This document shows positions 19,502 through 41,250 of a stretch of 64,000 nucleotides of DNA, in pieces (position 1 is the stretch's first letter; the number at the start of each line of letters is the position of its first letter). The notes under the pieces are model-generated. The model worked only from the letters and a program-made list of their open reading frames with translations, was not told where the DNA came from and ran no database searches. The stretch lies in NCBI GenBank assembly GCA_000471925.1, contig CP006668.1, positions 1,984,001 through 2,048,000 on the forward strand. Reading direction: 5' to 3'. Source of the stretch: Ralstonia pickettii DTP0602. Its GTDB lineage: Bacteria; Pseudomonadota; Gammaproteobacteria; Burkholderiales; Burkholderiaceae. The position numbers and the translations under genes are program-made.

Positions 19502-19521
19502 ATACGGTATGTGATATATCA
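19502..19521 (-). promoter_or_regulatory. Oxalate-regulon operator upstream of oxlT copy 1
   Basis: ATACGGTATGTGATATATCA, identical over all 20 bases to the sites upstream of the oxc and second frc operons. It contains the perfect palindrome TGATATATCA. A TTGACT hexamer just upstream on the minus strand (19526-19531) is a possible -35. Confidence 0.8.
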
Positions 19522-19531
19522 ACCAAGTCAA

Positions 19532-20150
19532 GCGACTTCTCTGCGGCCCTGCAGCATGAGGTGGCCGTGATCGACGCCTTTCTGGCCGATGCTGCAGTGC
19601 GACTGGTGCGCACGCTGCATCAATAACGCATCCGAAAGCATCAAGAGTTCTTTGGAAATCAAGCAGTTGCCATGTGCCGGCGCATCAATTCGCTGGCGCA
19701 TGGCAGCATCCAGAATGCCGGGGATCGGGCCTCGCGAAAATCGGGGAAAAGGCCAGTTCGGGAAAGTCCCTAGTTCAATACAATCAATACATGAAACGCA
19801 TGGATGGCGCCGGAATCATGCGGAAAATGCCTGGGGAGGAAGCGGGCTGGCCCGGCAGAGAGGCTGCCAGAGCGCGCGGAAGGAACGCCTGCGGGCGTCA
19901 TGTAGCGGGACTGCCTGCAGCGAGCTTAAGGGGGGATGGCGGCCGCTGGTTCGCGAGGAACCCTGCCCTGCCTGCCGGCTTGTGCGGCAACCAGGGAAAT
20001 CGCACCGTGGGTACTGCTACAAGGGGTGCCGGCCGCTACAGCCCTTGCGTGGGTTTGCCGCCAGGCAGGAACGGTGCGCGTCCTGCGTGCCTGCGCGGCC
20101 GCGGTTTTAGCCGTTTGACGCCCGCGGGCGCACGGCCTTGCCGGCGTGCA
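19532..20150. other. Gene-free stretch between oxlT and the small membrane protein
   Basis: About 620 bases. Several overlapping short frames exist, but their translations (Arg-, Cys- and Trp-rich, no membrane or domain pattern) and the lack of ribosome-binding sites argue against a gene. It could be a decayed remnant, but no parent family was recognised. Confidence 0.45.
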
Positions 20151-20369
20151 TCAAGCGTATGCCAGTTCGCCGGCTGCGGGCACGATGCGGGACTGGCGGG
20201 CACGGCCCACGCCATTGCTTTCCTGGTTCGAACCCAGGCCGGCAAAGCGACCGTGCTCCTGCGCGGTCGCCAGTACCTCCATCGGCAAGCGGGTTGCCAG
20301 CATGATGGTCATGCTGACGCCGCCAGCGATAAGAACCAGGCCAAGGACGAAGAGAAGAGCGACTTCCAT
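20151..20369 (-). CDS. Small single-span membrane protein, unknown function
   Basis: 72 residues. Residues about 3-28 (MEVALLFVLGLVLIAGGVSM) form one hydrophobic segment at the extreme N-terminus. A hydrophilic tail of about 40 residues follows, with no recognised motif. GGAG lies 7-8 bp before the ATG, supporting translation. I do not recognise the family. A variant of the oxalate-regulon operator (20440-20455) lies 71 bp upstream, so it may be co-regulated with the antiporter; a small membrane partner of OxlT is a guess only. Confidence 0.65.
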   Translation of the reverse strand: MEVALLFVLGLVLIAGGVSMTIMLATRLPMEVLATAQEHGRFAGLGSNQESNGVGRARQSRIVPAAGELAYA

Positions 20370-20439
20370 TTGAAAACTCCAGTAGCGTTGTGATCAGGAG
20401 TTTTCATTATATGGTGCGCTGCAGTATGTGTAAATATCC

Positions 20440-20455
20440 TGTATGTAATATATCA
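20440..20455 (-). promoter_or_regulatory. Variant oxalate-regulon operator
   Basis: TGTATGTAATATATCA differs at two positions from the GGTATGTGATATATCA found at the main sites. It lies upstream of the 72-residue membrane protein gene in an AT-rich patch. Confidence 0.5.
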
Positions 20456-20505
20456 GTAGAATTTTTGCACTAATCCAACAGATTCATGCGGATGGTCAGC
20501 GTCGA

Positions 20506-21429
20506 TCACACCAAGGTGTTTTCACGGCGCGCCGGGGGTGACTCCTTGTACTCCAGGCCGCGCAAGGCGTCCCAGATCGCCGCCGCATTAGGCTTCAGCG
20601 ATCGGCTCTTGCGGCGCACAAGCATGACGGTCGAGGTCACCTGCGGCCTGAGCGGCCGCATTACCGCGGCCGGGTTCATGCCCGCCGCCTGCGCGCGCGA
20701 CGGCACCACGCCGATCCCCAGCCCCAGCGCCACCATGCTGAATACCGCGGCAAAGTGCCCGAGCAACTGCAGCGAGCCCGCGCGCACGTGGTAGTTGCTG
20801 AACGCCTTCTCCACCGCCGGCTGCACGCCGCACTGCTGGTCCAGTGTCAGCAAGTTGGCGTCGCTCAGGTCGCCCCACCCTACCGAGTCACGCAATGCCA
20901 GCGGATGCTGGGCAGGCAGCACAGCGTGATAGGGGTCGATGCACAGCGGTTCGCAATAGAGGTCGTCGCCCGCCCTGGGGTCGGTGGAGATGCCGAAATC
21001 CACCTCGCCGCTGCGCACGCTTTGCAGTACCGATTCCTGCGAGCGGTCCTTCAGGTGGATGGCAATCGCGGGCCACGCCTGCCGGCAGCCGGCCAGCCAC
21101 GCGGGCAGCGACATCGAGCTGAGCACCGGATCCGAGGCGATCTGCACCAGGCCCTGGCACGGACGGCTGGCGCTCTGGCTGTCGCGTAGGGTCTGCTCCA
21201 CTTCCTCGATCAGGTGGCAGATGCGCTGCGACAGGTGCTGGCCGGCGTCGGTCAGTTCCACCTGGCGTGTGGTGCGATCGAACAGGCGCTGGTCGATCTC
21301 CTCTTCCAGCTCGCGCACGCTGCGGCTGACCGCGGACTGCGTCAGGCCCAGTTCAGCGGCCGCGCGCGTAAAGCTCTTGTGCCGCGCGACCGCGGCGAAG
21401 GCTTTCAGTTGTGGCAGCGAGATATTCAT
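20506..21429 (-). CDS. LysR-family transcriptional regulator
   Basis: 307 residues from the ATG at 21429 (MNISLPQLKAFAAVARHKSF). The N-terminal winged HTH has FTRAAAELGLTQSAVSRSVRELEEEI, and the rest is the LysR effector-binding domain. It lies between the two oxlT paralogues on the same strand, which suggests a role in organic-acid uptake or use, but no target is visible. The 289-bp gap before oxlT copy 2 holds no gene. An in-frame start at 21468 adds 13 unlikely residues. Confidence 0.88.
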   Translation of the reverse strand: MNISLPQLKAFAAVARHKSFTRAAAELGLTQSAVSRSVRELEEEIDQRLFDRTTRQVELTDAGQHLSQRICHLIEEVEQTLRDSQSASRPCQGLVQIASDPVLSSMSLPAWLAGCRQAWPAIAIHLKDRSQESVLQSVRSGEVDFGISTDPRAGDDLYCEPLCIDPYHAVLPAQHPLALRDSVGWGDLSDANLLTLDQQCGVQPAVEKAFSNYHVRAGSLQLLGHFAAVFSMVALGLGIGVVPSRAQAAGMNPAAVMRPLRPQVTSTVMLVRRKSRSLKPNAAAIWDALRGLEYKESPPARRENTLV

Positions 21430-21718
21430 GACTGCGCTCCCTGGCGGGCACCGGCATCGCGGGTGCAAGGCGAGTCAGCAAGCCTGGCGTGGGGGGTGGC
21501 GAGGCATCGTGGTGCAAGCACCGTTCCGTTCAGTCCGGTCACGGCAGTCTCCTAGGTGGATCGTGGCTGTGTGCAGCCATCGTTTGGTGTCGGTCATTCT
21601 CGTGGCAGCGGCCGGCGCAAAGCGCAGGCCGGCATGCCGGGTCGATGCTGCCGGGGCGCGCTGGCTGCCTGGCTCGACGCGCGCCCCTTGTGAGGGTCCT
21701 CCTTGCTCCGTGTGCGGG

Positions 21719-23059
21719 CTAGTCTCCCTTGCTTTGCATGCCGGGCATGTAGGTGGCGCCGGACACGGCCTCGCCGTCGGCCTGGCCGGTGATGAAGCTC
21801 CTGCGCATCGGCGCCAGGAATACCTTGGCCGAGATCCCGGCCGCGATGGTCACCACCGCTGCCACCGTGAACACCGCTTCCCAGCCCCCTCGCGCCGACA
21901 GGATCGACGCCAGCGGCACCAGCATCGCCGCCGTGCCCTTGGCCGTATAAAGCGTGCCGGCATTCGACGCCGCGAACTTGCTGCCGAACGTATCCGCGCA
22001 CAGCGCCGGGAAGATCGAGAAGATCTCGCCCCAGAACAGGAATGTCAGCGCCGCGAAGAACATGAACCAGTACGGGTTGTGGCCCAGCTCCATCAGCCCG
22101 AACAACGCCAGCCCCTCGCCGATGAAGATCACGAACATCGTGTTCTCGCGCCCGAACCGGTCGGACAGAAAGCCGCACAAGGGCCGCGTGAAGCCGTTGC
22201 ACAGGTTGTCGATCGACAGGGTCATGGTCAGCAGCGGCAAGGTCATGCCGAGCATCGTCACCGGCATCGAGGCAAAGCCGTAGTCCTTGGCGATGGGGCC
22301 CAACTGCGCCGTGGCCATGATCCCGCCGGCGGCCACCGCGACGAAGCTCACATAGATCAGCCAGAACACCGGCGTCTTCACCATCTGGCCCGGCGAGTAC
22401 TCCACCGAATTGGTCAGCACCGCCCTGGCCGCGACCAGGCCCTTCGGCGCCTTCGGCTTCACCAGCAGCAGCGCCAGCACGAAGATGCACACGCCCTGCA
22501 GGATGCCGAAGGTCAGGAACGCCTTCTCATAGCCCGAGCTCTGGATCATGTTGGCGATCGGGATCACCGTGATCGCCGCGCCGGCGCCAAAGCCCGCTGC
22601 CGTCAGCCCCGCCGCCAGCCCCCGCTTGTCCGGGAACCACTTCAGTGCGTTACCGACGCAGGTCCCATAGACGCCGCCAGCCCCGATGCCGGCTATCACA
22701 GCCGCCGCGTACAGCTCCGGCAGCGTCGTCGCATACGCATTCATCACCCACGCCAGCCCGGCGCAGATCGCACCGCCGGCGACCACCGGGCGCGGCCCGA
22801 ACTTGTCGACCAGCCAGCCCTCCAGCGGCACCAGCCAGGTCTCGGTCACGATGAAAATGGAAAACGCCACCTGGATCGCGGACGCGCCCCAGTGATGCTT
22901 GGCGTCCATCGGTGATACAAAGAGGGTCCAGCCGTACTGCAGGTTGGCTACCAGCCCCATGCAAACCACCCCGATCGCGAGCTGTACCCAACGGTTCTGC
23001 AGGCCACGCCCGTTCACGTTGCCGTGACCGGGCGTGGCCGCTGCTTCATATTGCGCCAT
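21719..23059 (-). CDS. Oxalate/formate antiporter (MFS), copy 2
   Basis: 446 residues, clearly paralogous to the copy at 18079-19398: NLQYGWTLFVSPMD, TETWLVPLEGWLVDKFGPRPVV, NAGTLYTAKGTAAMLVPLAS. It differs mainly at the termini and in the central loop. It is predicted to have 12 membrane segments. It is transcribed away from the LysR gene at 23273, with which it shares a 213-bp divergent promoter region containing an inverted repeat. No copy of the GntR operator core was found here, so this paralogue is probably under LysR control instead. Confidence 0.88.
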   Translation of the reverse strand: MAQYEAAATPGHGNVNGRGLQNRWVQLAIGVVCMGLVANLQYGWTLFVSPMDAKHHWGASAIQVAFSIFIVTETWLVPLEGWLVDKFGPRPVVAGGAICAGLAWVMNAYATTLPELYAAAVIAGIGAGGVYGTCVGNALKWFPDKRGLAAGLTAAGFGAGAAITVIPIANMIQSSGYEKAFLTFGILQGVCIFVLALLLVKPKAPKGLVAARAVLTNSVEYSPGQMVKTPVFWLIYVSFVAVAAGGIMATAQLGPIAKDYGFASMPVTMLGMTLPLLTMTLSIDNLCNGFTRPLCGFLSDRFGRENTMFVIFIGEGLALFGLMELGHNPYWFMFFAALTFLFWGEIFSIFPALCADTFGSKFAASNAGTLYTAKGTAAMLVPLASILSARGGWEAVFTVAAVVTIAAGISAKVFLAPMRRSFITGQADGEAVSGATYMPGMQSKGD

Positions 23060-23227
23060 CTGTCTCTGTCTCCTTGTGCTTGTTTGCTGCGTCCCGGACG
23101 GGACACCCTCCCGGGCCTCTTCAGAACGGGCCCTTGGTCACGATGAGATCGGCGCCTGACATTGCGGCATGCAAATCTGACGATTGATGCTACTTGAATC
23201 TAAGATCAACACCGCATAAAGTTTTTT

Positions 23228-23245
23228 ATCGTTTGTATTGACGAT
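23228..23245. promoter_or_regulatory. Inverted repeat in the oxlT2/lysR promoter
   Basis: ATCGT-N8-ACGAT, a T-N11-A type palindrome as used by LysR proteins. It lies 28 bp before the lysR start and is followed by an AT-rich TTTATATATT. A diverged copy of the whole surrounding region is present at 33367-33475. Confidence 0.65.
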
Positions 23246-23272
23246 CGTTTATATATTGCACGGAACGAGGGA

Positions 23273-24214
23273 ATGAAGAACGCCACGCTGCGGCAGCTCA
23301 AGGTCTTTGAAACCGTCGCCCGTCATATGAGCTTTTCACGTGCCGCCGAGGAGCTGCACCTGACGCAGCCGGCGGTTTCCACCCAGGTGCGGCAGCTCGA
23401 GCACCACGTCGGGCTGCCGCTGTTCGAGCAGCTCGGCAAGAAGATCTACCTGACCCCGGCCGGGCATGAAATGCTGCACTACAGCCGCAGCATCATCCAG
23501 CAGTTCCGCGAGGCCGAGGACGCCATGTCCCAGCTCAAGGGGATTTCCGGCGGGCGGCTCAACGTGGCGGTGATCAGCGCCGGCGACTATTTCTTCCCAC
23601 GGCTGCTGGCCGAGTTCATGGAGCGCCACGAGGGCGTGACGCTGAACCTGGCGGTCCATAACCGGGAGGAATTGCTGCACCAGCTAGCCGGCAACCTGAC
23701 CGACCTGGCTGTGATGGTGCGACCGCCCGAGGGCATGGACACCATCAACGAAGTGTTCGCCCCACACCCTTATGTGATCGTGGCCGCCCCCACCCATCGG
23801 CTGGTCGGCCAGCGCAATATCCCGCTGGCGGGGCTGGCCGACGAAGCCTTCGTTTCGCGTGAGAAAGGCTCGGATACCTGGAATTCGATGCAGGAAGGCT
23901 TTGCCGGGCGCCTCTCCAACCTGCGCATCGCGATGGAGATCAAGAGCACCGAGACCATCAAGCAGGCGGTGATCGCCAATATGGGCATCGCCTTCCTGTC
24001 CGCGCATACGGTCGGGCTGGAACTGCAGGCCGGCAAGCTGGCGGTGCTCGATATCGAGGGCTTTCCGGTCATGCTCAACTGGTATGTGGTGCACCGCAAG
24101 AACAAGCGGCTGCCGCCGGTGGCGCTGGCGTTCAAGCAATTCCTGATGGAGGAAGGGTCAGGGCTGATTGAGCGGATCACCGGGGTGGAAGGATTGATCC
24201 GCCAGCATGCATAA
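23273..24214 (+). CDS. LysR-family transcriptional regulator, CbbR-like
   Basis: 313 residues. The N-terminal HTH has MSFSRAAEELHLTQPAVSTQVRQLEHHVGLPLFEQLGKKIYLTPAG, a stretch close to the CbbR subgroup that regulates CO2-fixation and C1 genes. The effector-binding domain follows to about residue 300. It is divergent from oxlT copy 2, the classical LysR arrangement, so autoregulation plus control of the antiporter is likely. The effector is unknown; oxalate, formate or a downstream metabolite are reasonable candidates. Confidence 0.9.
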   Translation: MKNATLRQLKVFETVARHMSFSRAAEELHLTQPAVSTQVRQLEHHVGLPLFEQLGKKIYLTPAGHEMLHYSRSIIQQFREAEDAMSQLKGISGGRLNVAVISAGDYFFPRLLAEFMERHEGVTLNLAVHNREELLHQLAGNLTDLAVMVRPPEGMDTINEVFAPHPYVIVAAPTHRLVGQRNIPLAGLADEAFVSREKGSDTWNSMQEGFAGRLSNLRIAMEIKSTETIKQAVIANMGIAFLSAHTVGLELQAGKLAVLDIEGFPVMLNWYVVHRKNKRLPPVALAFKQFLMEEGSGLIERITGVEGLIRQHA

Positions 24215-24317
24215 ACGATTACTTATGGTTTCTCAATGAAACTTTAATTATCGTAAATCCATGCTCGACCCTATGCTTGTCTCAACGCCACCGCCAGCGT
24301 GCCACGAGGAGACGAGC

Positions 24318-24623
24318 ATGAACCAGACCCAGTTGCAAAGCCGACCCGCTGCCATCACGGTCGGCACCGACAACCAACCGATTCCGCGCGAGACCCAGCT
24401 CGCCGCCTACAACGCCGCCTTTATCGAACTGGGCCTGCGCTTCCGCTGGGACGCCGAGATGTATGAATGGCTGTGCGGCATCGAATGCGAAAAAGCCCGC
24501 GTGGCCCGCTATATCGAAGAACACCACGCCCACCTGCTGGCGGCCTATGACGCTGCCTTCCTGAGCGAGCTGATCTTCGAGAAGAAGAACGAATACCTGC
24601 GCGCGGTCGGCCACCTCAACTGA
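24318..24623 (+). CDS. Conserved hypothetical protein
   Basis: 101 residues, hydrophilic, no signal peptide or membrane segment. The C-terminal half is predicted to be mostly helical (MYEWLCGIECEKARVARYIEE, YDAAFLSELIFEKKNEYLRAV). An AGGAGACGAG site precedes the ATG at 24318, and a good terminator follows, so this is a real monocistronic gene. I do not recognise a domain or function. It lies 103 bp downstream of the LysR gene. Confidence 0.75.
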   Translation: MNQTQLQSRPAAITVGTDNQPIPRETQLAAYNAAFIELGLRFRWDAEMYEWLCGIECEKARVARYIEEHHAHLLAAYDAAFLSELIFEKKNEYLRAVGHLN

Positions 24624-24643
24624 GGGGGCCTGATCGGTTACGG

Positions 24644-24673
24644 GCGAGGCGCGCGAGCGGCCTCGCCTTTTTT
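24644..24673 (+). terminator. Rho-independent terminator
   Basis: GCGAGGC - 9-base loop - GCCTCGC followed by CTTTTTT, 21 bp after the preceding stop codon. Confidence 0.88.
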
Positions 24674-24705
24674 GTTGTGACGACGATGCGGTGGGCGCGC
24701 GCCGG

Positions 24706-24985
24706 TCAGTTGGTCTTCGCCACCATCAGGCAGCAGATCGCCAGGAACGAGAACAGCGCCCGGAAGCCCAAAGAGAACCACCGGAACAGGCGCCAGTACA
24801 GCCACGATCGGCACGATATTCGCTTGCCAACACGGCATCGCCGCCAGGCGCTCCGGGGCGAGCCGGCGCGGGCATGCGCCGCGCCCCTTTATCACATGAA
24901 AGCCTCCAGCCAGCATTGCGGCGCGGGCATGCCGGCCGATATAGCTGCCGGCACCGAGCACCAGCACGCGGTGGACGCGGCCACC
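24706..24985 (-). pseudogene. Remnant of an SDR-like protein fused by deletion to a membrane-protein C-terminus
   Basis: Read leftward from about 24985, one frame gives HRVLVLGAGSYIGRHARAAM, a typical NAD(P)-binding N-terminus of a COG0702-type SDR, which soon loses similarity. A different frame further on gives WLYWRLFRWFSLGFRALFSF and then LAICCLMVAKTN before a TGA at 24706. That resembles the end of a DUF2269-type membrane protein, which often lies next to such SDRs. The pieces are out of frame and most of both genes is missing, so this looks like one deletion scar. It overlaps the proposed start of the rightward membrane protein gene. Confidence 0.5.
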
Positions 24986-25450: not shown

Positions 25451-25605
25451 AGCAGCACACGTGGTAATTCCGGCGGAGCCGGTTGCAAGCTTTACGTGGG
25501 ACGCACACTTCACGGAAGAGAATCGACACGGCAATCGTCGTAAGATTCGGGATCCCGACCCCATACCCCGCCGGCGCCCCGGCGGATGTCCCCGATCCCA
25601 GCTTC

Positions 25606-29139: not shown

Positions 29140-29577
29140 CTAGGCCTGCTCCTTGATCTGGCTCTCCAGTTCGACGATGCGCTTCTTCAACGCCCGCTCT
29201 TCCTGGAAGCGCACGGTCTCGTCGCGGACCACGGCGACGATGCCAGTGATGGCGCCGGCGTCATCCTTGAGCAGCGCCACGGTGAAGGCGATCGACATCG
29301 ACTTGCCGTCCTTGTCGACCGCGGGCACCTTGAGCAGGTCGTGGCCGTAGCGGGTGATGCCGGTGGCCATGGTCTTGTCGTAGCCCTCCCAGTGGCGTCC
29401 GCGCAGGCGCTCCGGGATGATCAGGTCGAGCGACTGGCCCATGGCCTCGGCCTGGGTGTAGCCGAACATGCGCTCGGCTGCGGGATTCCACAGCGTGATG
29501 GCGCCCTTTGCGTCGGAAATAATGACGGCGTCGCCGATGGCGGACACCAGTTGCGCGTAATCGATCTGGTCTGGCAT
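29140..29577 (-). CDS. Stand-alone PAS-domain sensor protein
   Basis: 145 residues from the ATG at 29577, which has GAGGGA upstream. Almost the whole protein is one PAS domain (YAQLVSAIGDAVIISDAKGA, ITLWNPAAERMFGYTQAEAMG) with a PAC-like end, followed by a short C-terminal coiled coil (EERALKKRIVELESQIKEQ). There is no kinase, cyclase or DNA-binding domain. It lies 159 bp after the first formyl-CoA transferase gene on the same strand, so it may be the last gene of the oxc operon. A soluble redox or ligand sensor acting by dimerising with a partner is possible; the partner is unknown. Confidence 0.85.
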   Translation of the reverse strand: MPDQIDYAQLVSAIGDAVIISDAKGAITLWNPAAERMFGYTQAEAMGQSLDLIIPERLRGRHWEGYDKTMATGITRYGHDLLKVPAVDKDGKSMSIAFTVALLKDDAGAITGIVAVVRDETVRFQEERALKKRIVELESQIKEQA

Positions 29578-29736
29578 GGGGATTCCCTCTTTATCGGTCA
29601 TTGCCGCTTGGGTCGTTGCAAGCCTGTCGTTGCCATCAAGTTAGCGCGGCATGAAGCCGCTGCGCAAGTCAAAACGCCGGAGCCCGCTTGCGCGCGGCCC
29701 CGGCGTACGCACCGGCACATGTGCCGGCGGACGGCG

Positions 29737-31029: not shown

Positions 31030-32769
31030 TTACTTCTTGGCCGAGCTTTGCGGATTCAGATTGGTCAGACGACCGCTTTCGGTGCCGGCAGCCGGGTCGA
31101 TGACGGCATTGACCAGCGTGGGCTTGCCCGACCGCAGGGCTTCGTTCACCGCAGCTTCGAGTTCCGCCGGCGTGGTGACGTTGTGACCGACGCCACCGAA
31201 CGCTTCCATCATCTTGTCGTAGCGCGCGCCCGGAACGAACGTCGTGACGGCCGGATCCTTGCCGCCGGTCGGATTCACGTCGATACCCTTGTAGACGCCG
31301 TTGTTGTTGAAAATGACGATGCAGACCGGCAGGTTGTAACGGCAGATCGTCTCGACTTCCATGCCCGAGAAACCGAACGCACTGTCACCGCACAGCGCCA
31401 GCACCGGCTTGCCAGTCTCGACCGCCGCGGCGACCGCGTAGCCCATGCCCACGCCCATCACGCCCCAGGTGCCCACGTCAAGGCGCTTGCGCGGCTCGTA
31501 CATGTCGATCACGGCACGGGCGTAGTCCAGCGTGTTGGCGCCTTCGTTGACGAACGAGATGCCCGGGTTGGCCTTGACCACATCCTTCAGCACGTTCAGC
31601 GCACCGTGGAAGTTCATCGGCGAGACATCCTTGGCCTTGGCCAGGGTCTCGGCCATCTTCGCCAGGTTCTTGTCCTTGCGTTCGTCCACCGCGTTCAGCC
31701 ACTCGGCGCCCGGCTTGGCAAAGTCGTTGCCGACCTTGTCGAGGATCGCCGACACGCACGAACCAATGTCACCCACCACCGGCGCGGCGATGGCAACGTT
31801 GCTGTCCATCTCGGTCGGCGCGATGTCGATCTGGATGAATTGCTTCGGGCCACCCCAGGTCTTGCCCTTGCCGTGCGACAGCAGCCAGTTCAGGCGGGCG
31901 CCGACCAGCAACACCACGTCAGCTTCAGCCAGCACATACGAGCGTGCGGCCGAGGCCGATTGCGGGTGTGTATCGGGCAGCAGGCCCTTGGCCATCGACA
32001 TCGGCAGGTATGGAATGCCCGTCTTCTCGACCAGCGTGCGGATATCCGCATCGGCGCGTGCGTAAGCGGCACCCTTGCCCAGCAGGATCAGCGGGCGCTT
32101 GGCGTTCTTCAGCAGCGCGACGGCACGGTCGACCGAGTCCGGTGCAGGCAGTTGGCGCGGGGCCGGATCCACCACCTTGATCAGCGACTTGCGGCCCTTC
32201 TCGGCTTCCATCGACTGGCCCAGCAGCTTGGCCGGCAGGTCCAGATACACACCGCCCGGACGGCCCGACACGGCGGCACGAATAGCACGCGCGATCCCGA
32301 CACCAATGTCTTCAGCGTGCAGCACGCGGAAGGCAGCCTTGGCGTGCGGACGGGCGATGGCCAGCTGGTCCATCTCTTCGTAGTCACCCTGCTGCAAATC
32401 GACGATCTCGCGCTCGCTCGAACCGCTGATCAGGATCATCGGGAAGCAGTTGGTGGTCGCATGCGCCAGCGCCGTCAGCCCGTTCAGGAAGCCGGGCGCA
32501 GAAACGGTCAGGCACACGCCCGGCTTTTGCGTGAGAAAGCCGGCAATCGCTGCTGCGTTGCCTGCGTTCTGCTCGTGACGGAAGCTGATGACGCGCATGC
32601 CGTTGGCCTGCGCGAGACGAGCCAGATCGGTGACCGGAATGCCGGGCAGCCCGTAGATGTTTTCGATGCCGTTCAGCTTCAGCGCGTCGATGACCAGATG
32701 AAAACCATCGGTTTGTGCCTGATGTTCTTCCGCGGCGTGACGCTGCAACTCGTTTCCGACTTCTGCCAT
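31030..32769 (-). CDS. oxc: Oxalyl-CoA decarboxylase
   Basis: 579-residue thiamine-diphosphate enzyme. Segments seen are [15 protein letters not shown] and [20 protein letters not shown] (catalytic Glu region) in the N-terminal domain, a central domain, and the ThDP motif [30 protein letters not shown] in the C-terminal domain. It decarboxylates oxalyl-CoA to formyl-CoA and CO2 in the cytoplasm. Its transcript is preceded by a tiny ORF and by the oxalate-regulon operator. The AAGGAAGC before the ATG is a reasonable ribosome-binding site. Confidence 0.95.
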
Positions 32770-32811: not shown

Positions 32812-32871
32812 CTATTCCAGGGTGTCTTCCGCGGTGGTGCTCTCGGCCAACTTCGCTACGACTTCGGACAT
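32812..32871 (-). CDS. Tiny leader ORF of the oxc operon (19 residues)
   Basis: Encodes MSEVVAKLAESTTAEDTLE and then a stop. It has the ribosome-binding site GAGGAGA 8 bp before the ATG. Its N-terminus and DNA leader match the 47-residue ORF that heads the second frc operon (38752-38895): both begin MSEVV and contain STTA-DTL. It ends 42 bp before oxc. It may be a truncated copy of the longer peptide or a leader peptide. Unknown function; too short for confident gene prediction. Confidence 0.5.
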   Translation of the reverse strand: MSEVVAKLAESTTAEDTLE

Positions 32872-32987: not shown

Positions 32988-33007
32988 ATACGGTATGTGA
33001 TATATCA
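32988..33007 (-). promoter_or_regulatory. Oxalate-regulon operator upstream of the oxc operon
   Basis: ATACGGTATGTGATATATCA, identical to the sites at 19502 and 38942. Flanking bases CTTGATGAC before and GAA after are also shared with 38942, giving about 30 identical bases. Confidence 0.85.
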
Positions 33008-33184
33008 GAACGGCGCAAGAAGAATTTCTACTGACTCTTCAACTTTCGTCGGTGCGGCGCAGCAATCTTGCAGGCTACTGCTGCTAAATCAGGGCAATTA
33101 CTTAGTGCTAGCCATTGATGCGCGAACGACACAGATTGTCGACCCGCGATCCACGACAGGAAATACGCCCGTCACGTCGCCTTA

Positions 33185-33200
33185 GATATATCACATACCA
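33185..33200 (+). promoter_or_regulatory. Second, inverted oxalate-regulon site
   Basis: GATATATCACATACCA, the same element in opposite orientation, about 195 bp upstream of the oxc-proximal site. The frc2 operon has the same two-site layout (38942 and 39116). Confidence 0.65.
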
Positions 33201-33475: not shown

Positions 33476-33535
33476 TCGGCATGAAATGCCCCGGCGGTGT
33501 TCCATAGCTTCCCGTCCATGGAACACCGCCCCGTC

Positions 33536-34933: not shown

Positions 34934-34949
34934 GGCTGTCTCCTTGGCC

Positions 34950-36512
34950 TTAATCTCGCTGGAACATCTTCAGCATGCGTTGCGTGACCAGGAAGCCGCC
35001 GGCGATATTGATGGTGGCGACAAACACCGCGCAGCCCGCAATAACCGCCGTCACCAACGACGGCTTGCCCAGCTGCACCAGCGCCCCCACCACGATGATC
35101 CCGCTGATGGCATTGGTCACGCTCATCAACGGCGTATGCAGCGCGGCGGTGACGTTCCACACGACCTGGTAGCCGACGAAGATCGCCAGCACGAACACCG
35201 TGAAATGCGCCATGAATGTCGGCGGCGCGACCGCGCCCAGGCCGAGCAGCGCAGCCGCCGCCAGCGCCAGCGCGACTAGCGTCACGCCGGTACGGCTTGG
35301 CGGCTCGGGGGCTTCCGCTTGCACCGGTGGCGTCGCGGCCGGCGCCTGCTGTTGCGGGATGGCCACCGTCAGCGGCGGCGGTGGCCACGTCACCGCGCCC
35401 TGGTGCAGCACCGTGGCGCCGCGGATCATCTCGTCATCCATATCGACCACGAGCTGCCCGTCCTTGCCCGGCGTCAGCTCGGTCAGCAGGTGGCGGATAT
35501 TGGTGGCGTAGAGCTGGCTGGCCTGCGCCGCCATGCGGCTGGGCAGGTCGGTATAGCCGATGATCGTCACGCCGTTGCGGCGCACCGATTCCCCAGGCTC
35601 GGTCAGCACGCAGTTGCCGCCCTGCTCCGCGGCCAGGTCCACCACCACGCTGCCCGCGCGCATCAGGCCAACGGTGCCGGCCTCGAGCAGCTTCGGGGCG
35701 GGCTTGCCCGGGATCAGCGCGGTCGTGATGATGATGTCGACCTCGCGTGCCTGCTCGGCAAAGAGGCGCATCTCCGCCTCGATAAACGCGGGACTCATCT
35801 CCTTGGCATAGCCGCCGCTGCCACTGCCGTCTTCCTCGATCTCAACCGTGAGGAACTCGGCGCCAAGGCTTTCGATCTGCTGGCGCACCACCGGCCGCGT
35901 ATCGAAGGCGCGCACCACCGCGCCCAGGCTGCGCGCCGCGCCGATCGCCGCCAGCCCCGCCACGCCCGCGCCGATCACCAGCACGCGCGCCGGCGGGATC
36001 TTTCCCGCCGCCGTGATCTGCCCGGCGAAGGGACGGCCGAAGGCATGGGCGGCCTCGATCACCGCGCGGTAGCCCGCCATATTGGCCATCGAGCTGAGGG
36101 CATCGAGCTTTTGCGCGCGCGAGATGCGCGGCACGCAATCCATCGCCAGCACCGTCGCGCCGCGCTGCGTCAGCCGCTCCAGCATCGCCATCTGCTGCGC
36201 CGGCCAGACAAAGCCGATCAGCGTGGCGTGCTTCTTCAGCAGCGCCGCCTCTTCCACGCCCAGGCTGGGATGGACCTGCGGCGGGCGCACCTTGATCACC
36301 ACGTCGACCGACGCCCACAGGCTGGCCGCATCGACAATGGCCGCGCCGGCGGCGCGATAGTCATCGTCGGAGAACGAGGCCTCCTGGCCCGCGCCGGTTT
36401 CTACCGCCACCTGGTAGCCGAGCTTGAGCAGTTCCCTGACCGAGTCCGGGGTGGCGGCGACGCGCCGCTCTCCCGGATGGACCTCGCGTGGCACACCGAT
36501 CGTCATTGGCAT
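34950..36512 (-). CDS. pntA: NAD(P) transhydrogenase subunit alpha
   Basis: 520 residues from the ATG at 36512, which has AGGA about 10 bp upstream; a GTG at 36521 is an alternative start. The N-terminal alanine-dehydrogenase/PNT domain I binds NAD(H) ([41 protein letters not shown]). A Pro/Ala-rich linker near residue 400 leads to four membrane segments ([19 protein letters not shown] onward). Single-chain alpha subunit as in E. coli, not split into PntAA/PntAB. It follows the FAH-family gene in the same direction. Confidence 0.94.
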
Positions 36513-36548
36513 GGCATTCACCGTCCTGTATGTGAGTGCGGACGGCGT

Positions 36549-37331
36549 TCAGCCGTGCACGTGGTTGACCAGCGAGCCGATGCCCGCGATCGCCACCTCC
36601 ACCACCGCGCCGTCCTTCATCGAGCCCACGCCGAGCGAAGTGCCGACCGCGATCACATCGCCCGGCATCAGCGTCAGGTCCTGCGAGATGCGGCTGACCT
36701 GCTCCTCGGGCGAAAAGATCATGTCCGACAGCGGGTAGTTCTGCCGCTCCACGCCGTCCAGGCGCGTCACCACGCTGGCCGCCTTCCAGTTGAAGCCGGT
36801 GACGATGGCCGGGCCGACGCAGCCGAAGGTGTCGAAGCCCTTGGCGCGCGTCCACTGCGGGAAGTTGGGGTCGGCGGTGATCAGCTCGGCCGCGGTGACG
36901 TCGTTGACGATGGTGTAGCCGAAGATATGCGCGCCCGCTTCCGCCACCGACACGTTACGCGCCATCTTGCCGATGACGATGCCGAGCTCGCCCTCATAGA
37001 CGATCTTGCCGTCATAGCTCTTGGGGCGCTGCACCGCGTCGCCGGGTCCGGCCAGCGACGATGCCGGCTTGATCAGGAACAGCGGGTGCGTGGGCACGGG
37101 CTTTTCCAGCTTGCGGGCGAGCGCGTGGAAGTTGTTCCACAGCGCCACCACCTTGCCGGGCTCGCAGGGTGCCAGCAGTGTCAGCGCCGCGCGCTCGTGC
37201 ACGGCACCCGTCGGGGCGGGGTCGTTGAAACCATCACCGTCGTATTCGACGACGCGGCTGCCATCGGGTCCATCCAGACGGCCATGGGCGATGCGGCCGT
37301 CAGCGCGGCGAAAGCGTATCCAGGTTTGCAC
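36549..37331 (-). CDS. Fumarylacetoacetate hydrolase (FAH) family protein
   Basis: 260 residues. The FAH-fold metal-binding signature is seen as YEGELGIVIGK (Glu ligands) and GYTIVNDVTAAEL, with PGDVIAVGTSLGVGS near the C-terminus. Family members hydrolyse or decarboxylate C-C bonds of 2-oxo or acyl-pyruvate compounds and include oxaloacetate decarboxylases. Its place between frc copy 2 and pntA in one operon is unusual and suggests a function in C2/C4 dicarboxylate metabolism, such as oxaloacetate or hydroxy-oxo-acid turnover. The actual substrate is unknown. Confidence 0.88.
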   Translation of the reverse strand: MQTWIRFRRADGRIAHGRLDGPDGSRVVEYDGDGFNDPAPTGAVHERAALTLLAPCEPGKVVALWNNFHALARKLEKPVPTHPLFLIKPASSLAGPGDAVQRPKSYDGKIVYEGELGIVIGKMARNVSVAEAGAHIFGYTIVNDVTAAELITADPNFPQWTRAKGFDTFGCVGPAIVTGFNWKAASVVTRLDGVERQNYPLSDMIFSPEEQVSRISQDLTLMPGDVIAVGTSLGVGSMKDGAVVEVAIAGIGSLVNHVHG

Positions 37332-37437
37332 AACGTGCTCCTTGCGCAGGCAAAAGGGGGGCTTGCCTGCTCCGTGATGGGTTGCAGGATATTGGAAGAG
37401 AAAAAGGAATTCGGGGCGGCGCGCGCGCCTTGCCTGT

Positions 37438-37461
37438 CATTCCCGCGCAGGCGGGAACGAC
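37438..37461. repeat. REP-like extragenic palindrome
   Basis: CATTCCCGCGCAGGCGGGAACG, with stem TTCCCGC/GCGGGAA, is of the type scattered between genes in many beta- and gammaproteobacteria. It lies in the 161-bp gap between frc copy 2 and the FAH gene and could attenuate transcription into pntAB. Confidence 0.65.
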
Positions 37462-37492
37462 ATGGTGGCAAGGCGTCGCGTCGGTCGCTACC

Positions 37493-38725
37493 TCATACCG
37501 CCCCGGCCAGCTTCATCGCCGCGATCTGCGCGGGCGTGCGTCCCAGCCACTCAAGGATCTCGTCGGTATGCTCGCCCAGCAGCGGCGAACGCTCGACTTC
37601 CACCGGCGAGGCCGACAGCGTGATCGGGCAACCCAGCTGCACGTAGTTGCCGCGCTGCGGATGCTCGAGCTCCACCAGGTAGCCACGCTGGTACAGCGAC
37701 TGGTCCTCGATCAGGTCCTTCATCGACAGGATCGGGCCGCACGGCACATCGACTTCATTGAGCGCCGCCATCACGTCGAATTTGCTCAGGCCGCCGGTCC
37801 ATTTCTCGATCACGGCGAAACAGTCGGCCAGGTGCTTGAGCCGCGCTTCTGGCGTGGCGTAGTCGGGATTGTTGATCAGGTCCTCACGGCCGCACAGGCG
37901 CATCAGCGGCTCCCAGCCCTGCGGCTGGATGATGACGTAGACATAGTCATTGGGGCCGCCCGGCGCACAGCGCAACGCCGCGCCCGGCTGGCCGCCGCCC
38001 GAGGCATTGCCGGCGCGCGGCACGTGGTCGCCGAACTCTTCATTCGGGTACTCGCGCAGCGGTCCGTTGTCCAGGCGCTGCTGGTCGCGCAGCTTGACGC
38101 GGCACAGGTTCAGCACCGCATCCTGCATCGCCACCTCCACGCGCTGGCCGCGGCCGGTGTGCTCGCGCTGCAGCAGCGCGGCCAGGATGCCGACCACGCA
38201 ATGCACGCCCGTGCCCGAGTCGCCGATCTGCGCGCCGGTCACGGTGGGCACGCCCTCGGCATCGCCCGTGGTGGAGGCCGAGCCGCCCATGCACTGCGCC
38301 ACGTTCTCATACGCCTTGCAGTCGGCGTATGGCCCCGGGCCGAAGCCCTTGATCGACGCATAGACCAGCCGCGGATTCAGGTCCTGCAGGTGCTCCCAGT
38401 CGAAGCCGGCGCGCGCCAGCACGCCGGGCCCGAAGTTCTCGATCAGCACGTCGCTGCGCTGTACCAGGTCTTCGAGCAGCGCCTTGCCTTCGGGCGTCTT
38501 CATGTTCAGCGTCAGGCTGCGCTTGTTGGAGTTGAGCATGGTGAAGTACAGGCTGTCGGCGTTGGGCACGTCGCGCAGCTGGCTGCGGGTGATATCCCCG
38601 CGGCCCGGCATTTCCACCTTGATCACGTCCGCGCCCAGCCACGCCATCAGCTGCGTGGCCGAGGGGCCTGCCTGGACGTGGGTCATGTCCAGGATGCGAA
38701 CACCTTGCAGGGCCTTGGTTTCCAT
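37493..38725 (-). CDS. frc: Formyl-CoA:oxalate CoA-transferase, copy 2
   Basis: 410 residues, paralogous to the copy at 29737. Catalytic Asp in IGDSGTGVH, Gln in MTHVQAGP, glycine loop as SGGGQPG. It keeps the active-site residues, so it is likely a functional class III CoA-transferase; altered loops (for example [11 protein letters not shown]) may change the acyl acceptor. It is the second gene of the operon small ORF-frc-FAH-pntA-pntB, preceded by the shared oxalate operator. Differences in specificity between the two copies cannot be judged by eye. Confidence 0.9.
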
Positions 38726-38751
38726 TGCGGTTGTCTCCTCGGGCGATGGTT

Positions 38752-38895
38752 TTACTTGTACATGGTCTGGTTCTTGGTGCCTGGCGCGTACTCGCTCGGA
38801 TCCACCCAGATACTGATCACCGCCGACTTGCCGGGCGTCAGGGTGTCATCCGCGGTGGTGCTCCCGGCCCGCGTGGCTTCGACGACTTCGGACAT
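38752..38895 (-). CDS. Small unknown protein heading the frc2-pntAB operon (47 residues)
   Basis: Starts at the ATG at 38895 with GAGGAGA 8 bp upstream and reads [20 protein letters not shown] and then [20 protein letters not shown], ending KNQTMYK. It is hydrophilic, with no signal or membrane segment. It lies 26 bp before frc copy 2 and 47 bp after the oxalate operator, so it is almost certainly transcribed with the operon. A shorter paralogue heads the oxc operon. I do not recognise the family. Confidence 0.7.
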
Positions 38896-38941
38896 GTCTT
38901 GGTCTCCTCGTGGATTTACCGTTTTCGGCTGCCTTGATGAC

Positions 38942-38961
38942 ATACGGTATGTGATATATCA
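38942..38961 (-). promoter_or_regulatory. Oxalate-regulon operator upstream of the frc2-pntAB operon
   Basis: ATACGGTATGTGATATATCA, 47 bp before the small ORF start, identical to the oxlT and oxc sites. Position suggests overlap with the promoter and therefore repression. Confidence 0.85.
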
Positions 38962-39115
38962 GAAGAGAGCAAGGGGAGTTTGCCCGATCCCACGCACATT
39001 TCGACGGTGCAGCGCAGCAAATCCGGCCAGGAAGCCGTCTTTTCCCGACAATTCAGCGTAATGCCGGAGGGTTCAGAACATCCGCGCATCAATCCGGCCG
39101 ACCGACTTTTCGCAT

Positions 39116-39131
39116 TGATATATCACATACC
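39116..39131 (+). promoter_or_regulatory. Inverted oxalate-regulon site between gntR and the frc2 operon
   Basis: TGATATATCACATACC, opposite orientation to the site at 38942 and about 172 bp away (centre to centre). It forms the same pair layout as at the oxc promoter. Confidence 0.75.
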
Positions 39132-39217
39132 ATCAAGCGAAACGGAGTCAGACTGCCAGAAATGAAAACGGCGGACATCGTCCGCCATTCCGCCGCCCTG
39201 CCCCTGCCCCGCCGTCG

Positions 39218-39937
39218 TCAGTCGAGGAAATCGCAGTGCGTCTCGACGTAGTCGGCCAGGTCCAGAGAGTGCTGCCGCACCAGCCGCTCGGCCAGCTCGG
39301 TATCGCGCCGTTCCAGCGCTTCGATGATGCGCAGGTGGTCCACGATCGAACGCGACGCGCGGTCGCTCTGCGAGATCGTCATCTTCCGGATCGCCCGCAC
39401 GTGGATAAAGATATTGCGGATCGTGTCCATGATGATCTGCGACTTGGACAGCTGCACGATCGCCTGGTGGAACGCGATATTGGCGTCGGAATACTCTTCA
39501 ATATGCTCGGCCGGCGTGGAATCGCGGAAGCTGTCGAACATATGGCGCAGCTGCCTGATCTCCGCATCGGTCGCGTTCTGGGTCGCCAGCCGCGCCGCCA
39601 TGCTTTCAAGCGCCGCCCACATCTGGATCATCTCGACGATCTCGCGCTTGGTCTTGCGCATGATGTAGATGCCGCGGCGCGGTACGGTGCGCAGGAAGCC
39701 TTCCTGCTCCAGCAGCGTCATCGCTTCGCGGATCGGCGTGCGGCTCACGCCCATGGCCTCGCTCAGCACCCGTTCATCGAGCCGGATCTCTTCATGCGAC
39801 TGGTAGATGTCGGCGTCGGCAATGGCCTGCCGCAGCATGGCGTAGGCCTGGTCGCGCAGGCTGGCGCCGGCGTTGATCGGTTGCACGGACAGGCTCAGGC
39901 CGGGAGGCTGAGCGATCGATTGGCTTTGCGCAGACAT
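39218..39937 (-). CDS. GntR-family (FadR/FCD type) regulator, proposed oxalate regulator
   Basis: 239 residues from the ATG at 39937. The N-terminal winged HTH reads LRDQAYAMLRQAI, RLDERVLSEAMGVSRTPIREAMTLLEQEGFL and VPRRGIYIM. The C-terminal FCD all-helical ligand domain has metal-binding His candidates in IAFHQAIVQ and VDHLRIIEALERRD. It sits inside the cluster of shared operators, and FCD-type GntR proteins bind short palindromes such as TGATATATCA, so it is the natural candidate to control oxlT, oxc-frc, frc2-pntAB and panE. The ligand may be oxalate, oxalyl-CoA or formyl-CoA. Direct evidence is lacking. Confidence 0.88.
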   Translation of the reverse strand: MSAQSQSIAQPPGLSLSVQPINAGASLRDQAYAMLRQAIADADIYQSHEEIRLDERVLSEAMGVSRTPIREAMTLLEQEGFLRTVPRRGIYIMRKTKREIVEMIQMWAALESMAARLATQNATDAEIRQLRHMFDSFRDSTPAEHIEEYSDANIAFHQAIVQLSKSQIIMDTIRNIFIHVRAIRKMTISQSDRASRSIVDHLRIIEALERRDTELAERLVRQHSLDLADYVETHCDFLD

Positions 39938-40094
39938 GAATGAGCTCGTGTGAGACCGTGGCGCGGCGGCCGGAATGGCTGCCCTCCGCATTCCCGCACA
40001 GCTTAGCAAAAACGCCCGACTCATTACGAATATGCATCAAGCAATGCGTCGTCGTCATGCATCGGCACTGCGGCGGTGCGCGGTCTGTCGTATA

Positions 40095-40104
40095 TGGTAT
40101 ATCA
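40095..40104. promoter_or_regulatory. Operator variant upstream of gntR
   Basis: TGGTATATCA differs at one position from the TGATATATCA core. It lies 158 bp before the gntR start, suggesting autoregulation. Confidence 0.5.
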
Positions 40105-40212
40105 CTATCGCCCTGCCTTCCCGCTTTGCAAGCCAGGCGCGCGCAACATTTGCGCCGCCGGCGTGCCGCAGGGGGCACCCGACACTGCGATGCCCCCCGC
40201 TGTGGTCCGTCT

Positions 40213-41190
40213 TCAGGCGGCCAGTTTCGCCATCGCGTCGCGCTGCTTGATCAAGCCCAGAACGGCGTCACACATCGGCGTGGGCTGTCCCACCCGCCGC
40301 CCCATCTCCTGCACCACGGTCAGCAGCGGGTCGATTTCCATGGCCCGCCCTGCCTCCAGGTCCTGCAGCATCGAAGTCTTGTGCGCACCCACGGCGCCGG
40401 CACCGTCGATGCGACGCTCCACGTCGACACGGAACTTCACGCCGAAGCGCTCGGCAATGGCCTGCGCCTCGACCATCATCTGGCGCGACAGCGCGCGCGT
40501 GGCGGGGTCCGAGGTAATGACGTCGAGCGTGGCATGCGTGAGCGCGCTGATCGGGTTGAAGCACAGGTTGCCCCACAGCTTGAGCCAGATCTCGTCGCGG
40601 ATGTTATCGCGCACCGGCGCCTCCAGGTCGGCGGCCATCATCATCTCGCTCAGCTGCGTGACGCGCGACGAGCGGCTGCCGTCGGGCTCGCCCAGCGGAA
40701 ACTTCTTGCCGTAGACGTGCTTGATCACGCCGGGCGCCACGATCTCGGCGGCGGGATAGACCACGCAGCCGATCGCGCGCTCAGGGCCCAGGCCTTTCCA
40801 CTGGCGCGCGCCAGGATCCACGCTCTCCAGCGTGCTGCCGGCGAGGTCGCCGCCATGCTTGTAGAAGTACCAGTATGGGATGCCGTTGACGCCGGTGACG
40901 ATCGCGGTCTGGGCCCCCAGCAGCGGCTGTATCAGGTCGACCACGCCGGGCACCGAATGTGCCTTCAGGGTAATGAACACATAATCCTGCGGCCCGAGTT
41001 CGTGCGGATCGCTGGTGCAGCGCACCTGCGCCACGCGCTCCTCGCCGTCGATCAGCAGCCTGACGCCGTTCTCCTTCATCGCCGCCAGGTGCGGACCGCG
41101 CGCAACGAAGCTGACCTCCGCCCCCGCGCGCGCCAGTTGCGCCCCGACATAGCCGCCAATGGCGCCCGCGCCATAGATACACACTTTCAT
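40213..41190 (-). CDS. PanE/ApbA-type ketopantoate reductase-like protein
   Basis: 325 residues. The N-terminal Rossmann motif is YGAGAIGGYVGAQLARAG (residues 6-23), with the C-terminal all-helical PanE domain including the catalytic Lys/Asn region (LKLWGNLCFNPISALT). True PanE makes pantoate for CoA synthesis, but many homologues reduce other 2-oxo acids. Here the gene carries an oxalate-regulon operator 45 bp before its start, so it may supply pantoate/CoA for a CoA-heavy pathway or reduce a C2-C4 oxo acid such as glyoxylate. It is separate from the usual panBC genes. Ends 275 bp before the gntR start. Confidence 0.85.
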   Translation of the reverse strand: MKVCIYGAGAIGGYVGAQLARAGAEVSFVARGPHLAAMKENGVRLLIDGEERVAQVRCTSDPHELGPQDYVFITLKAHSVPGVVDLIQPLLGAQTAIVTGVNGIPYWYFYKHGGDLAGSTLESVDPGARQWKGLGPERAIGCVVYPAAEIVAPGVIKHVYGKKFPLGEPDGSRSSRVTQLSEMMMAADLEAPVRDNIRDEIWLKLWGNLCFNPISALTHATLDVITSDPATRALSRQMMVEAQAIAERFGVKFRVDVERRIDGAGAVGAHKTSMLQDLEAGRAMEIDPLLTVVQEMGRRVGQPTPMCDAVLGLIKQRDAMAKLAA

Positions 41191-41234
41191 GCCTGTCTCC
41201 TTGTGGCTCGATATGAAGCTCGATAACGATCTTT

Positions 41235-41250
41235 TGATATATCACATACT
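41235..41250 (+). promoter_or_regulatory. Oxalate-regulon operator upstream of the panE-like gene
   Basis: TGATATATCACATACT, differing from the site at 39116 only in the last base. It is 45 bp before the start codon, the same distance as at the frc2 operon. Confidence 0.8.

What the first reader, a model, noticed from the sequence alone, without database searches (positions are those of the whole stretch)
19502..41250. A GntR-controlled oxalate regulon defined by a shared TGATATATCA operator
The same 20-bp sequence ATACGGTATGTGATATATCA occurs unchanged at 19502 (oxlT), 32988 (oxc-frc) and 38942 (frc2-FAH-pntAB). Inverted or variant copies occur at 33185, 39116, 40095 (gntR), 41235 (panE-like) and 20440 (small membrane protein). 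A FadR/FCD-type GntR protein is encoded in the middle. This would tie transport, both CoA-transferases, the decarboxylase, transhydrogenase, a ketopantoate-reductase homologue and two unknown small proteins into one circuit.
Basis: partly seen in the sequence, partly recalled or inferred. Interest (0 to 1): 0.85.

Follow-up and report, generated by a model that had tools for sequence, protein, structure and literature searches.

The report
GntR operator network for oxalate use
A soil bacterium appears to switch its oxalate-eating genes through one repressor that recognises a shared short DNA word, and comparing relatives suggests that the key enzyme's gene took over the promoter of a different enzyme that it now replaces.

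Summary
The 20-mer occurs unchanged at 19502, 32988 and 38942. Over the 8.13 Mb Cupriavidus genome, the core 15-mer GTATGTGATATATCA occurs exactly six times: five in this cluster, the sixth before a third oxalate/formate antiporter on another contig. Among 398 genomes of the family the motif tracks gntR (149 of 197 with it, 1 of 201 without) and not oxc (0 of 54 oxc+ gntR- genomes). Best reading: an FCD-type GntR repressor, autoregulated, with operators inside promoters and often a second, conserved operator upstream. Binding, repression and effector are inferred.

Corrections: panE-like is probably oxalyl-CoA reductase ApbA2/PanE2; oxlT2 has no site; the oxlT1 operon probably includes formate dehydrogenase; the small ORF before frc2 is the in-frame deletion scar of a ThDP enzyme; oxc sits behind a copy of that enzyme's promoter and first codons.

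Unexpected: of 135 gntR+ genomes in three genera, 92 have oxc only, 35 the ThDP enzyme only, 4 both, 4 neither, as if the ThDP enzyme replaces oxalyl-CoA decarboxylase. The regulon is a new member of a known kind.

The parts
39218..39937 (-). GntR/FCD regulator gene, probable start at 39937 (239 aa); the ORF as listed runs to 40024
   Evidence: Pfam GntR 46.7 bits and FCD 93.8 bits; most aligned orthologues begin at this MS.. start
40090..40104 (+). operator before gntR (variant GTATATGGTATATCA), probable autoregulation site
   Evidence: a site is found before gntR in 75 of 80 relatives' loci
41235..41254 (-). operator before the panE-like gene
   Evidence: a site before panE in 32 of 59 loci that hold the gene
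40213..41190 (-). panE/apbA family reductase, probably oxalyl-CoA reductase (ApbA2/PanE2)
   Evidence: NCBIfam PRK06522.1-4, 539.6 bits; ApbA2 of C. necator H16 lies close to frc-oxc and its deletion slows growth on oxalate (PMC7486775, passages)
38942..38961 (+). proximal operator of frc2, between a CTTG -35-like box and a TACCGT -10-like box
   Evidence: logo of 68 proximal sites of relatives
39116..39135 (-). distal operator of frc2, opposite orientation, 164 bp core to core from the proximal one
   Evidence: distance; paired architecture in relatives
38752..38895 (-). 47-aa leader ORF: in-frame deletion scar of a 584-aa ThDP enzyme
   Evidence: its ends match the N- and C-termini of the intact protein of L053, L057, L060, L062 and L064
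37493..38725 (-). frc2, formyl-CoA transferase family
   Evidence: TIGR03253, 634.5 bits against cut-off 504.2
36549..37331 (-). FAH-family hydrolase
   Evidence: Pfam FAA_hydrolase, 204.3 bits
34950..36521 (-). pntA transhydrogenase subunit
   Evidence: TIGR00561, 742 bits
33536..34933 (-). pntB transhydrogenase subunit
   Evidence: NF006974, 691.6 bits against cut-off 689
32988..33007 (+). proximal operator of oxc-frc
   Evidence: a site before oxc in 19 of 19 relatives' loci with oxc at 45% identity or more
33184..33199 (-). distal operator of oxc-frc, opposite orientation, 186 bp core to core
32812..32871 (-). 19-aa leader ORF before oxc: remnant of the first codons of the ThDP gene
   Evidence: a short ORF of this kind, by eye, in 17 of 19 relatives' oxc leaders
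31030..32769 (-). oxc, oxalyl-CoA decarboxylase
   Evidence: TIGR03254, 1053 bits
29737..30987 (-). frc, formyl-CoA transferase
   Evidence: TIGR03253, 733 bits
19502..19521 (+). operator of oxlT1
18079..19398 (-). oxlT1, oxalate/formate antiporter
   Evidence: TIGR04259, 631 bits
16190..17989 (-). NuoEF-like subunit, probably of formate dehydrogenase and co-transcribed with oxlT1
   Evidence: best hits NuoF/NuoE families, all below cut-off; same strand, 89-bp gap
13367..16180 (-). formate dehydrogenase alpha subunit
   Evidence: TIGR01591, 766.6 bits against cut-off 666.25; 9-bp gap to the preceding gene
20436..20455 (+). operator before the 72-aa membrane-protein gene, just upstream of a TTTACA-N17-TATAAT promoter-like pair (by eye)
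   Evidence: conserved in 10 of 10 aligned sequences, the own genome among them
20151..20369 (-). conserved 72-aa small membrane protein of unknown function
   Evidence: 72 codons open in 10 of 10 aligned sequences, own genome plus 9 relatives; DNA match in 48 of 60 genus genomes, own included

Best explanation
The FCD-type GntR protein encoded at 39218-39937 binds the operator GGTATGTGATATATCA. In its complete form this is the palindrome GTATGTGATATATCACATAC, but most sites have only one outer arm. In the absence of substrate it represses oxc-frc, frc2-FAH-pntAB, panE/apbA2, oxlT1 (probably with formate dehydrogenase), oxlT3 on another contig, and itself. At the oxc, frc2, oxlT1 and oxlT3 promoters the operator fills the spacer between the -35-like and -10-like boxes, so bound protein would exclude polymerase. 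At oxc and frc2 a second, oppositely oriented operator upstream probably strengthens repression. Oxalate, or a close product such as oxalyl-CoA or glyoxylate, binds the metal-containing FCD pocket and releases the DNA. Shown here: the sites, their specificity, their conservation and their co-occurrence with gntR. Inferred: binding, repression, the second operator's role and the effector.
For: Six exact 15-mers in 8.13 Mb, all before oxalate genes. Motif in 149 of 197 gntR+ and 1 of 201 gntR- family genomes, reversed control 0 of 398 (cross-tallied by hand). In 0 of 54 oxc+ gntR- genomes; in the genus's 17 oxc- genomes, 12 of 13 with gntR and 0 of 4 without. Distant exact sites in other genomes: 15 of 15 in the genus stand before oxlT3; of 5 fetched from genus g9, 3 before oxlT1, 1 before oxlT3, 1 at panE/gntR. 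The one gntR- exception (G233) has its site 35 bp before a panE that is cut by the start of a 5.3 kb contig. Site before gntR in 75 of 80 loci. 68 operator pairs in 53 loci; proximal logo CTTG..N17..TACCGT. FCD residues D, H, H, H align with T. maritima 3sxy; that these bind the metal is recalled.
Against: No binding or expression data. The consensus promoter scan found no sigma-70 site at frc2 or oxc: TACCGT matches the -10 consensus at only 3 of 6, so the promoter assignment rests on conservation. At the 72-aa gene the operator lies upstream of the -35-like box, which suits activation or no role as well as repression. Operator-pair spacing shows no common helical phase, so looping is not established. 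L067 and L071 carry the GntR (85 and 83% identity) but no site at 3 mismatches or fewer in the DNA held. Of 20 strongly gntR+ genomes without the exact motif, 2 have no 1-mismatch site either, and some 1-mismatch sites are off target: three that I examined (two of G034, one of G017) have none of the query genes near. 28 more genomes (g10) have a weaker homologue (about 1e-102 to 1e-105), oxc, and no motif.
Confidence: 0.78

Rival explanations
1. The operator is bound by another regulator that travels with the oxalate genes, such as one of the two LysR proteins (20506-21468, 23273-24214), and GntR is a bystander.
For: lysR2 and lysR1 lie near oxlT2 in many relatives.
Against: oxlT2, which is divergent to lysR2, has no site at 3 mismatches or fewer. 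Several loci with gntR and sites show no lysR2 or lysR1 in the DNA held (L051, L054-L058), though the flanks are finite. The site precedes gntR in 75 of 80 loci. An inverted repeat with TGRT/AYCA halves suits a GntR dimer.
Confidence: 0.08
2. GntR binds the sites but acts as an activator, or as both, rather than as a pure repressor.
For: The FadR-subfamily member GlcC is an activator (stated in a passage of PMC11323563). At the 72-aa gene the operator lies just upstream of the -35-like box.
Against: At oxc, frc2, oxlT1 and oxlT3 the operator fills the -35/-10 spacer as I read it, where a bound dimer should block polymerase.
Confidence: 0.14
3. The shared 20-mer is only the trace of a promoter duplication and has no regulatory role.
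For: The oxc and frc2 upstream regions are homologous.
Against: The 16-mer stays nearly invariant while the flanks have diverged across the 80 loci (logos), and it occurs before oxlT1, oxlT3, panE and gntR, whose upstream regions gave no match longer than 36 bp.
Confidence: 0.02

Closest known systems
GlcR/GlcC/LldR, FadR-subfamily GntR regulators of hydroxy-acid use (PMC11323563, passages seen)
   Same: Same subfamily; GlcR and GlcC genes lie beside the carboxylate catabolism genes they control; GlcR is a repressor
   Different: Different pathway; the operator here is TGAT-N2-ATCA with outer GTAT arms, not the TKGT-N3-ACMA form given for the subfamily (PMC4494728, passages seen); LldR and GlcC equivalog scores far below cut-off
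PhnR of Burkholderia (TIGR03338)
   Same: Best NCBIfam hit of the regulator
   Different: 107.1 bits against a cut-off of 271.5
Oxalate use in Cupriavidus necator H16: frc-oxc and apbA2 (PMC7486775, passages seen)
   Same: Same enzymes and neighbourhood; deletion phenotypes on oxalate are known
   Different: None of the passages shown treats oxalate regulation; 'GntR' has 0 occurrences in its main text
NanR, a FadR-subfamily repressor with a (GGTATA)3 operator (PMC8012715, start of the abstract in the listing)
   Same: GRTAT-like half-sites used more than once in one operator
   Different: Here two half-sites are inverted and a third, GGTAT, lies 7 bp away as a direct repeat

Membership tests
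GntR, FadR/FCD subfamily | GntR wHTH plus FCD domain | tested here: met
   PF00392 46.7 bits, PF07729 93.8 bits, both above cut-off
GntR, FadR/FCD subfamily | FCD metal-ligand residues (Asp and three His) | tested here: met
   D..H..H..H align with 3sxy; their role as metal ligands is recalled
GntR, FadR/FCD subfamily | Operator TKGT-N3-ACMA | tested here: not met
   Core is TGAT-AT-ATCA, 2-nt centre; the same paper lists exceptions such as NanR and BioR
GntR, FadR/FCD subfamily | Carboxylate effector changes DNA binding | not testable with these tools
   needs binding assays
PhnR equivalog (TIGR03338) | score above the curated cut-off | tested here: not met
   107.1 against 271.5
Oxalyl-CoA decarboxylase (TIGR03254), for the ThDP enzyme of relatives | score above the curated cut-off | tested here: not met
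   215.1 against 739.4
Oxalyl-CoA decarboxylase, for the ThDP enzyme of relatives | Oxc Tyr-Glu (DYEE) and C-terminal SGR | tested here: not met
   aligned positions read SLQD and no SGR; the role of these residues is recalled
2-hydroxyacyl-CoA lyase (NF058623), for the ThDP enzyme of relatives | score above the curated cut-off | tested here: not met
   357.6 against 600

The most novel reading that the evidence does not exclude
The 584-aa ThDP enzyme that shares this operator in relatives is an unrecognised, non-orthologous stand-in for oxalyl-CoA decarboxylase. In Cupriavidus, oxc entered the GntR circuit by acquiring a copy of that enzyme's promoter, operators and first codons, after which the ThDP gene was lost, leaving a 47-aa scar in this genome. 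This would be regulatory capture by promoter duplication followed by displacement of the donor enzyme.
Probability: 0.42. Interest if true: 0.75.

Novelty: new member of a known kind. Interest (0 to 1): 0.57.

Why it matters
Oxalate is an abundant plant and fungal acid, and in the listings of my paper searches (open-licence PMC papers only) I saw no described transcription factor for its use in Cupriavidus or Paraburkholderia. A defined operator and regulator would give an oxalate-responsive genetic switch. The either/or pattern of oxc and the ThDP enzyme under one regulator makes a direct enzymatic test possible and offers a clear case of promoter capture.

Tried and rejected
Considered and rejected: (a) chance repeats, by shuffles and a whole-genome scan; (b) the motif as a marker of oxc rather than gntR (0 of 54 oxc+ gntR- genomes); (c) a strict helical register for looping; (d) the frc2 leader ORF as an ordinary small protein: its two ends are those of a larger enzyme. 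Led nowhere: consensus promoter scans (nothing found); a structure prediction of GntR, still unfinished at its last poll, so no fold was used; PMC7057948, no occurrence of oxal-, GntR, formyl-CoA or glyoxyl- in its main text; PMC5789663, one unrelated 'oxal' hit; PMC12927642 and PMC9476978, no occurrence of 'regulator'; searching print for TGATATATCA: 30 papers hold the string, 15 were listed, none of those titles is about oxalate.

Rows dropped or limited: gene hits under 45% identity were ignored; 43 of 274 sites were then unassigned, and 36 of these stand before the ThDP-type gene, the other 7 at or near contig or locus ends or without a query gene. Overlapping matches within 12 bp were merged. 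One search counts only neighbouring +/- sites 30-300 bp apart. One search tested 80 of 104 gntR+ genomes of g20 and g9 (53 of 53 and 27 of 51). Handle lists, and the motif/gntR/oxc cross-tallies, were transcribed by hand; one genome (G398) is outside the 398 and was not used. The match lists were cut, so the genome rows were used; one search's output was cut and partly re-read. The distant sites fetched were chosen from the listed part. The Fisher values ignore phylogeny. The tree is midpoint-rooted and has 15 open forks of 38.
Full report
WHERE IT IS. The window is G000:C2:1984001-2048000 of an 8.13 Mb genome in three contigs. The GntR protein is 97% identical to that of Cupriavidus necator A5-1 and 91-92% to several other Cupriavidus, so this is a Cupriavidus. 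Family searches confirm two oxalate/formate antiporters, oxc, two frc genes, pntA, pntB, an FAH-family hydrolase and a panE/apbA-family reductase.

THE OBSERVATION. The 20-mer is exact at 19502, 32988 and 38942, with three further places at up to three mismatches and none in 100 shuffles. Eight TGATATATCA-like places compare with 0.29 expected. Across the whole genome the 15-mer GTATGTGATATATCA has six exact places. Five are in the window (oxlT1, oxc, frc2 proximal, frc2 distal, panE); the sixth is on contig C1, about 200 bp before a 433-aa OxlT-like antiporter, here called oxlT3. One-mismatch places are the 20436 and 33184 sites. Two-mismatch places are the gntR site and one unexplained place on C3. 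The 16 places with three mismatches are near the level of the reversed-pattern control (14 in all up to three mismatches).

DOES IT BELONG TO GNTR? The exact 14-mer TATGTGATATATCA is in 150 of 398 genomes of the family, and its reverse in none. GntR homologues (E <= 1e-40) are in 197 of the same 398. Cross-tallied by hand, 149 of the 197 have the motif and 1 of the other 201 does. That one (G233) has the site 35 bp before a panE cut by the start of its 5.3 kb contig, so its gntR may be an assembly gap. Of the 48 gntR+ genomes without the exact motif, 28 have only a weaker homologue (about 1e-102 to 1e-105, genus g10). Of the remaining 20, 18 have a one-mismatch site; with G233 these 21 genomes gave one control match. 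Many of those one-mismatch sites lie within a few kb of gntR, but two of G034 and one of G017 that I examined do not adjoin any query gene. oxc is in 206 of 398; 54 of these lack gntR, and none of the 54 has the motif. Inside the genus, of 17 genomes without oxc, 12 of the 13 with gntR have the motif and 0 of the 4 without. So the motif follows gntR and not oxc. Shared ancestry inflates any p-value, but the pattern repeats in Cupriavidus (54 of 55 gntR+, 0 of 4 gntR-), g20 (53 of 53, 0 of 6) and g9 (40 of 51, 0 of 7).

WHAT THE SITES STAND BEFORE. In 80 relatives' loci a site precedes gntR in 75 of 80, oxc in 19 of 19, frc2 in 21 of 27, frc in 30 of 60, panE in 32 of 59 and oxlT1 in 3 of 3. 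The frc count includes copies that follow oxc in its operon. I then fetched 20 further exact sites of other genomes. All 15 distant ones in the Cupriavidus genomes of the listed part stand before the oxlT3 orthologue. Of five from g9, three stand before oxlT1, one before oxlT3 and one at panE/gntR.

ANATOMY. Aligned over 68 proximal sites, the conserved string is CTTG, about 17 bp, TACCGT, with TGATATATCACATACC filling the spacer. Distal sites conserve only GGTATGTGATATATCA and a few neighbouring bases. I read the proximal site as an operator inside a promoter and the distal one as a second operator. The consensus scan does not call these promoters, so this rests on conservation. Some Paraburkholderia sites carry both outer arms (GTATGTGATATATCACATAC in L094), which shows the full palindrome expected for a dimer. 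Pair spacing, core to core, is 164 (frc2) and 186 (oxc) here; in relatives it is 154-160 in 25 of 27 pairs of L068-L113, 183-187 for Cupriavidus oxc and 110-209 for frc2, with no common helical phase. The regulator's FCD residues D, H, H, H align with a solved FCD protein; from recalled knowledge these bind a metal, and oxalate is a metal chelator, so direct sensing of oxalate is plausible but untested.

PATHWAY. In C. necator H16, deleting frc-oxc abolishes growth on oxalate and deleting apbA2, which lies close to frc-oxc, slows it (PMC7486775, passages). The panE-like gene here has the same neighbourhood and family, so I take it as ApbA2, the oxalyl-CoA reductase; orthology was not tested directly. 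Oxalyl-CoA reduction (NADPH use is recalled) would explain the transhydrogenase. Behind oxlT1, 89 bp away on the same strand, lie a NuoEF-like subunit and a formate dehydrogenase alpha subunit, which would join formate oxidation to the circuit. oxlT2 has no site. In a transcriptome of Burkholderia terrae, genes of two oxalate clusters rise near a fungus (PMC5209427), which agrees with substrate control; the 12 of 16 passages shown name no regulator for them.

THE TWO SMALL LEADERS. The 47-aa ORF between operator and frc2 has about the first 19 and the last 26 residues of a 584-aa ThDP enzyme that is intact at this place in C. basilensis KF708, C. gilardii J11, C. respiraculi, C. pauculus and several Paraburkholderia (names). 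It is an in-frame deletion scar. The 19-aa ORF before oxc is the same enzyme's N-terminus, and the oxc upstream DNA matches the ThDP upstream DNA in blocks around the operator and around those codons. In 17 of 19 relatives the oxc leader keeps a short ORF that I read as such a remnant, three of them (L050, L056, L059) less alike. In 17 oxc loci that I took from other genera, the promoter instead has a different, related word (TNGTATATCA, often GAATATTGTATATCAC or TATGGTATATCAC) in 15, and none in L118 and L129. In six of these loci a second GntR paralogue stands beside oxc, and those six form a clade (100/97). The split is not clean: regulators of g9 and g17, whose loci carry the TGATATATCA-type site, group with these six (98/96). 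Cupriavidus genomes with gntR have a single match at E <= 1e-40, except one with two. The simplest history is that oxc in Cupriavidus acquired a copy of the ThDP promoter and so passed to this GntR.

EITHER/OR. The ThDP enzyme is in 14 of 60 Cupriavidus genomes: the 13 that have gntR but no oxc, plus one with two clusters that has both. Over 135 gntR+ genomes of three genera, 92 have oxc only, 35 ThDP only, 4 both, 4 neither. This suggests that the two enzymes fill one role. Against it, the ThDP enzyme is only about 28% identical to Oxc and lacks its Tyr-Glu and SGR residues. Its best curated family is an acetolactate synthase model, then 2-hydroxyacyl-CoA lyase, both below cut-off. Its best solved relatives are 2-hydroxyacyl-CoA lyases, but it has Ile at the position that differs among those lyase chains (that this is their catalytic Glu is recalled). 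Its cluster in L053 also holds an ADP-forming CoA ligase and SucCD-like genes, so another substrate is possible.

VERDICT. A real, genome-wide specific regulon with a well-supported regulator. Direct binding, sign and effector remain to be shown. The kind of system is known; I did not see this regulon, its operator or its evolution described in the listings and passages that I looked at.

Noticed in passing
window 20372-20405 (minus strand): The 72-aa gene's GGAG ribosome-binding stretch lies in a 9-bp hairpin (GAAAACTCC..GGAGTTTTC) directly before the ATG; both arms are identical in 10 of 10 aligned sequences, -15.3 kcal/mol, z -3.2 with the first codons. A possible translational switch.
   Followed up: partly
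window 29140-29601: A 153-aa PAS-domain protein follows the oxc-linked frc in many loci of several genera; its role in oxalate use is unknown.
   Followed up: no
L053:13641-15392 and relatives: ThDP enzyme with an either/or distribution against oxc.
   Followed up: yes
L114-L133, promoters of oxc: A second GntR paralogue beside oxc in six loci and a related word (TNGTATATCA) before oxc in 15 of 17 in other genera: a likely sister oxalate regulator.
   Followed up: partly
G000:C3:402443-402457: Two-mismatch operator-like site 86 bp before an ORF that looks like a deacetylase by eye, the only hit at 2 mismatches or fewer outside oxalate genes.
   Followed up: no
L053:10985-13082 (minus strand): SucCD/malate-CoA-ligase-like genes divergent to the ThDP operon, so the distal operator there may serve as their proximal one.
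   Followed up: no
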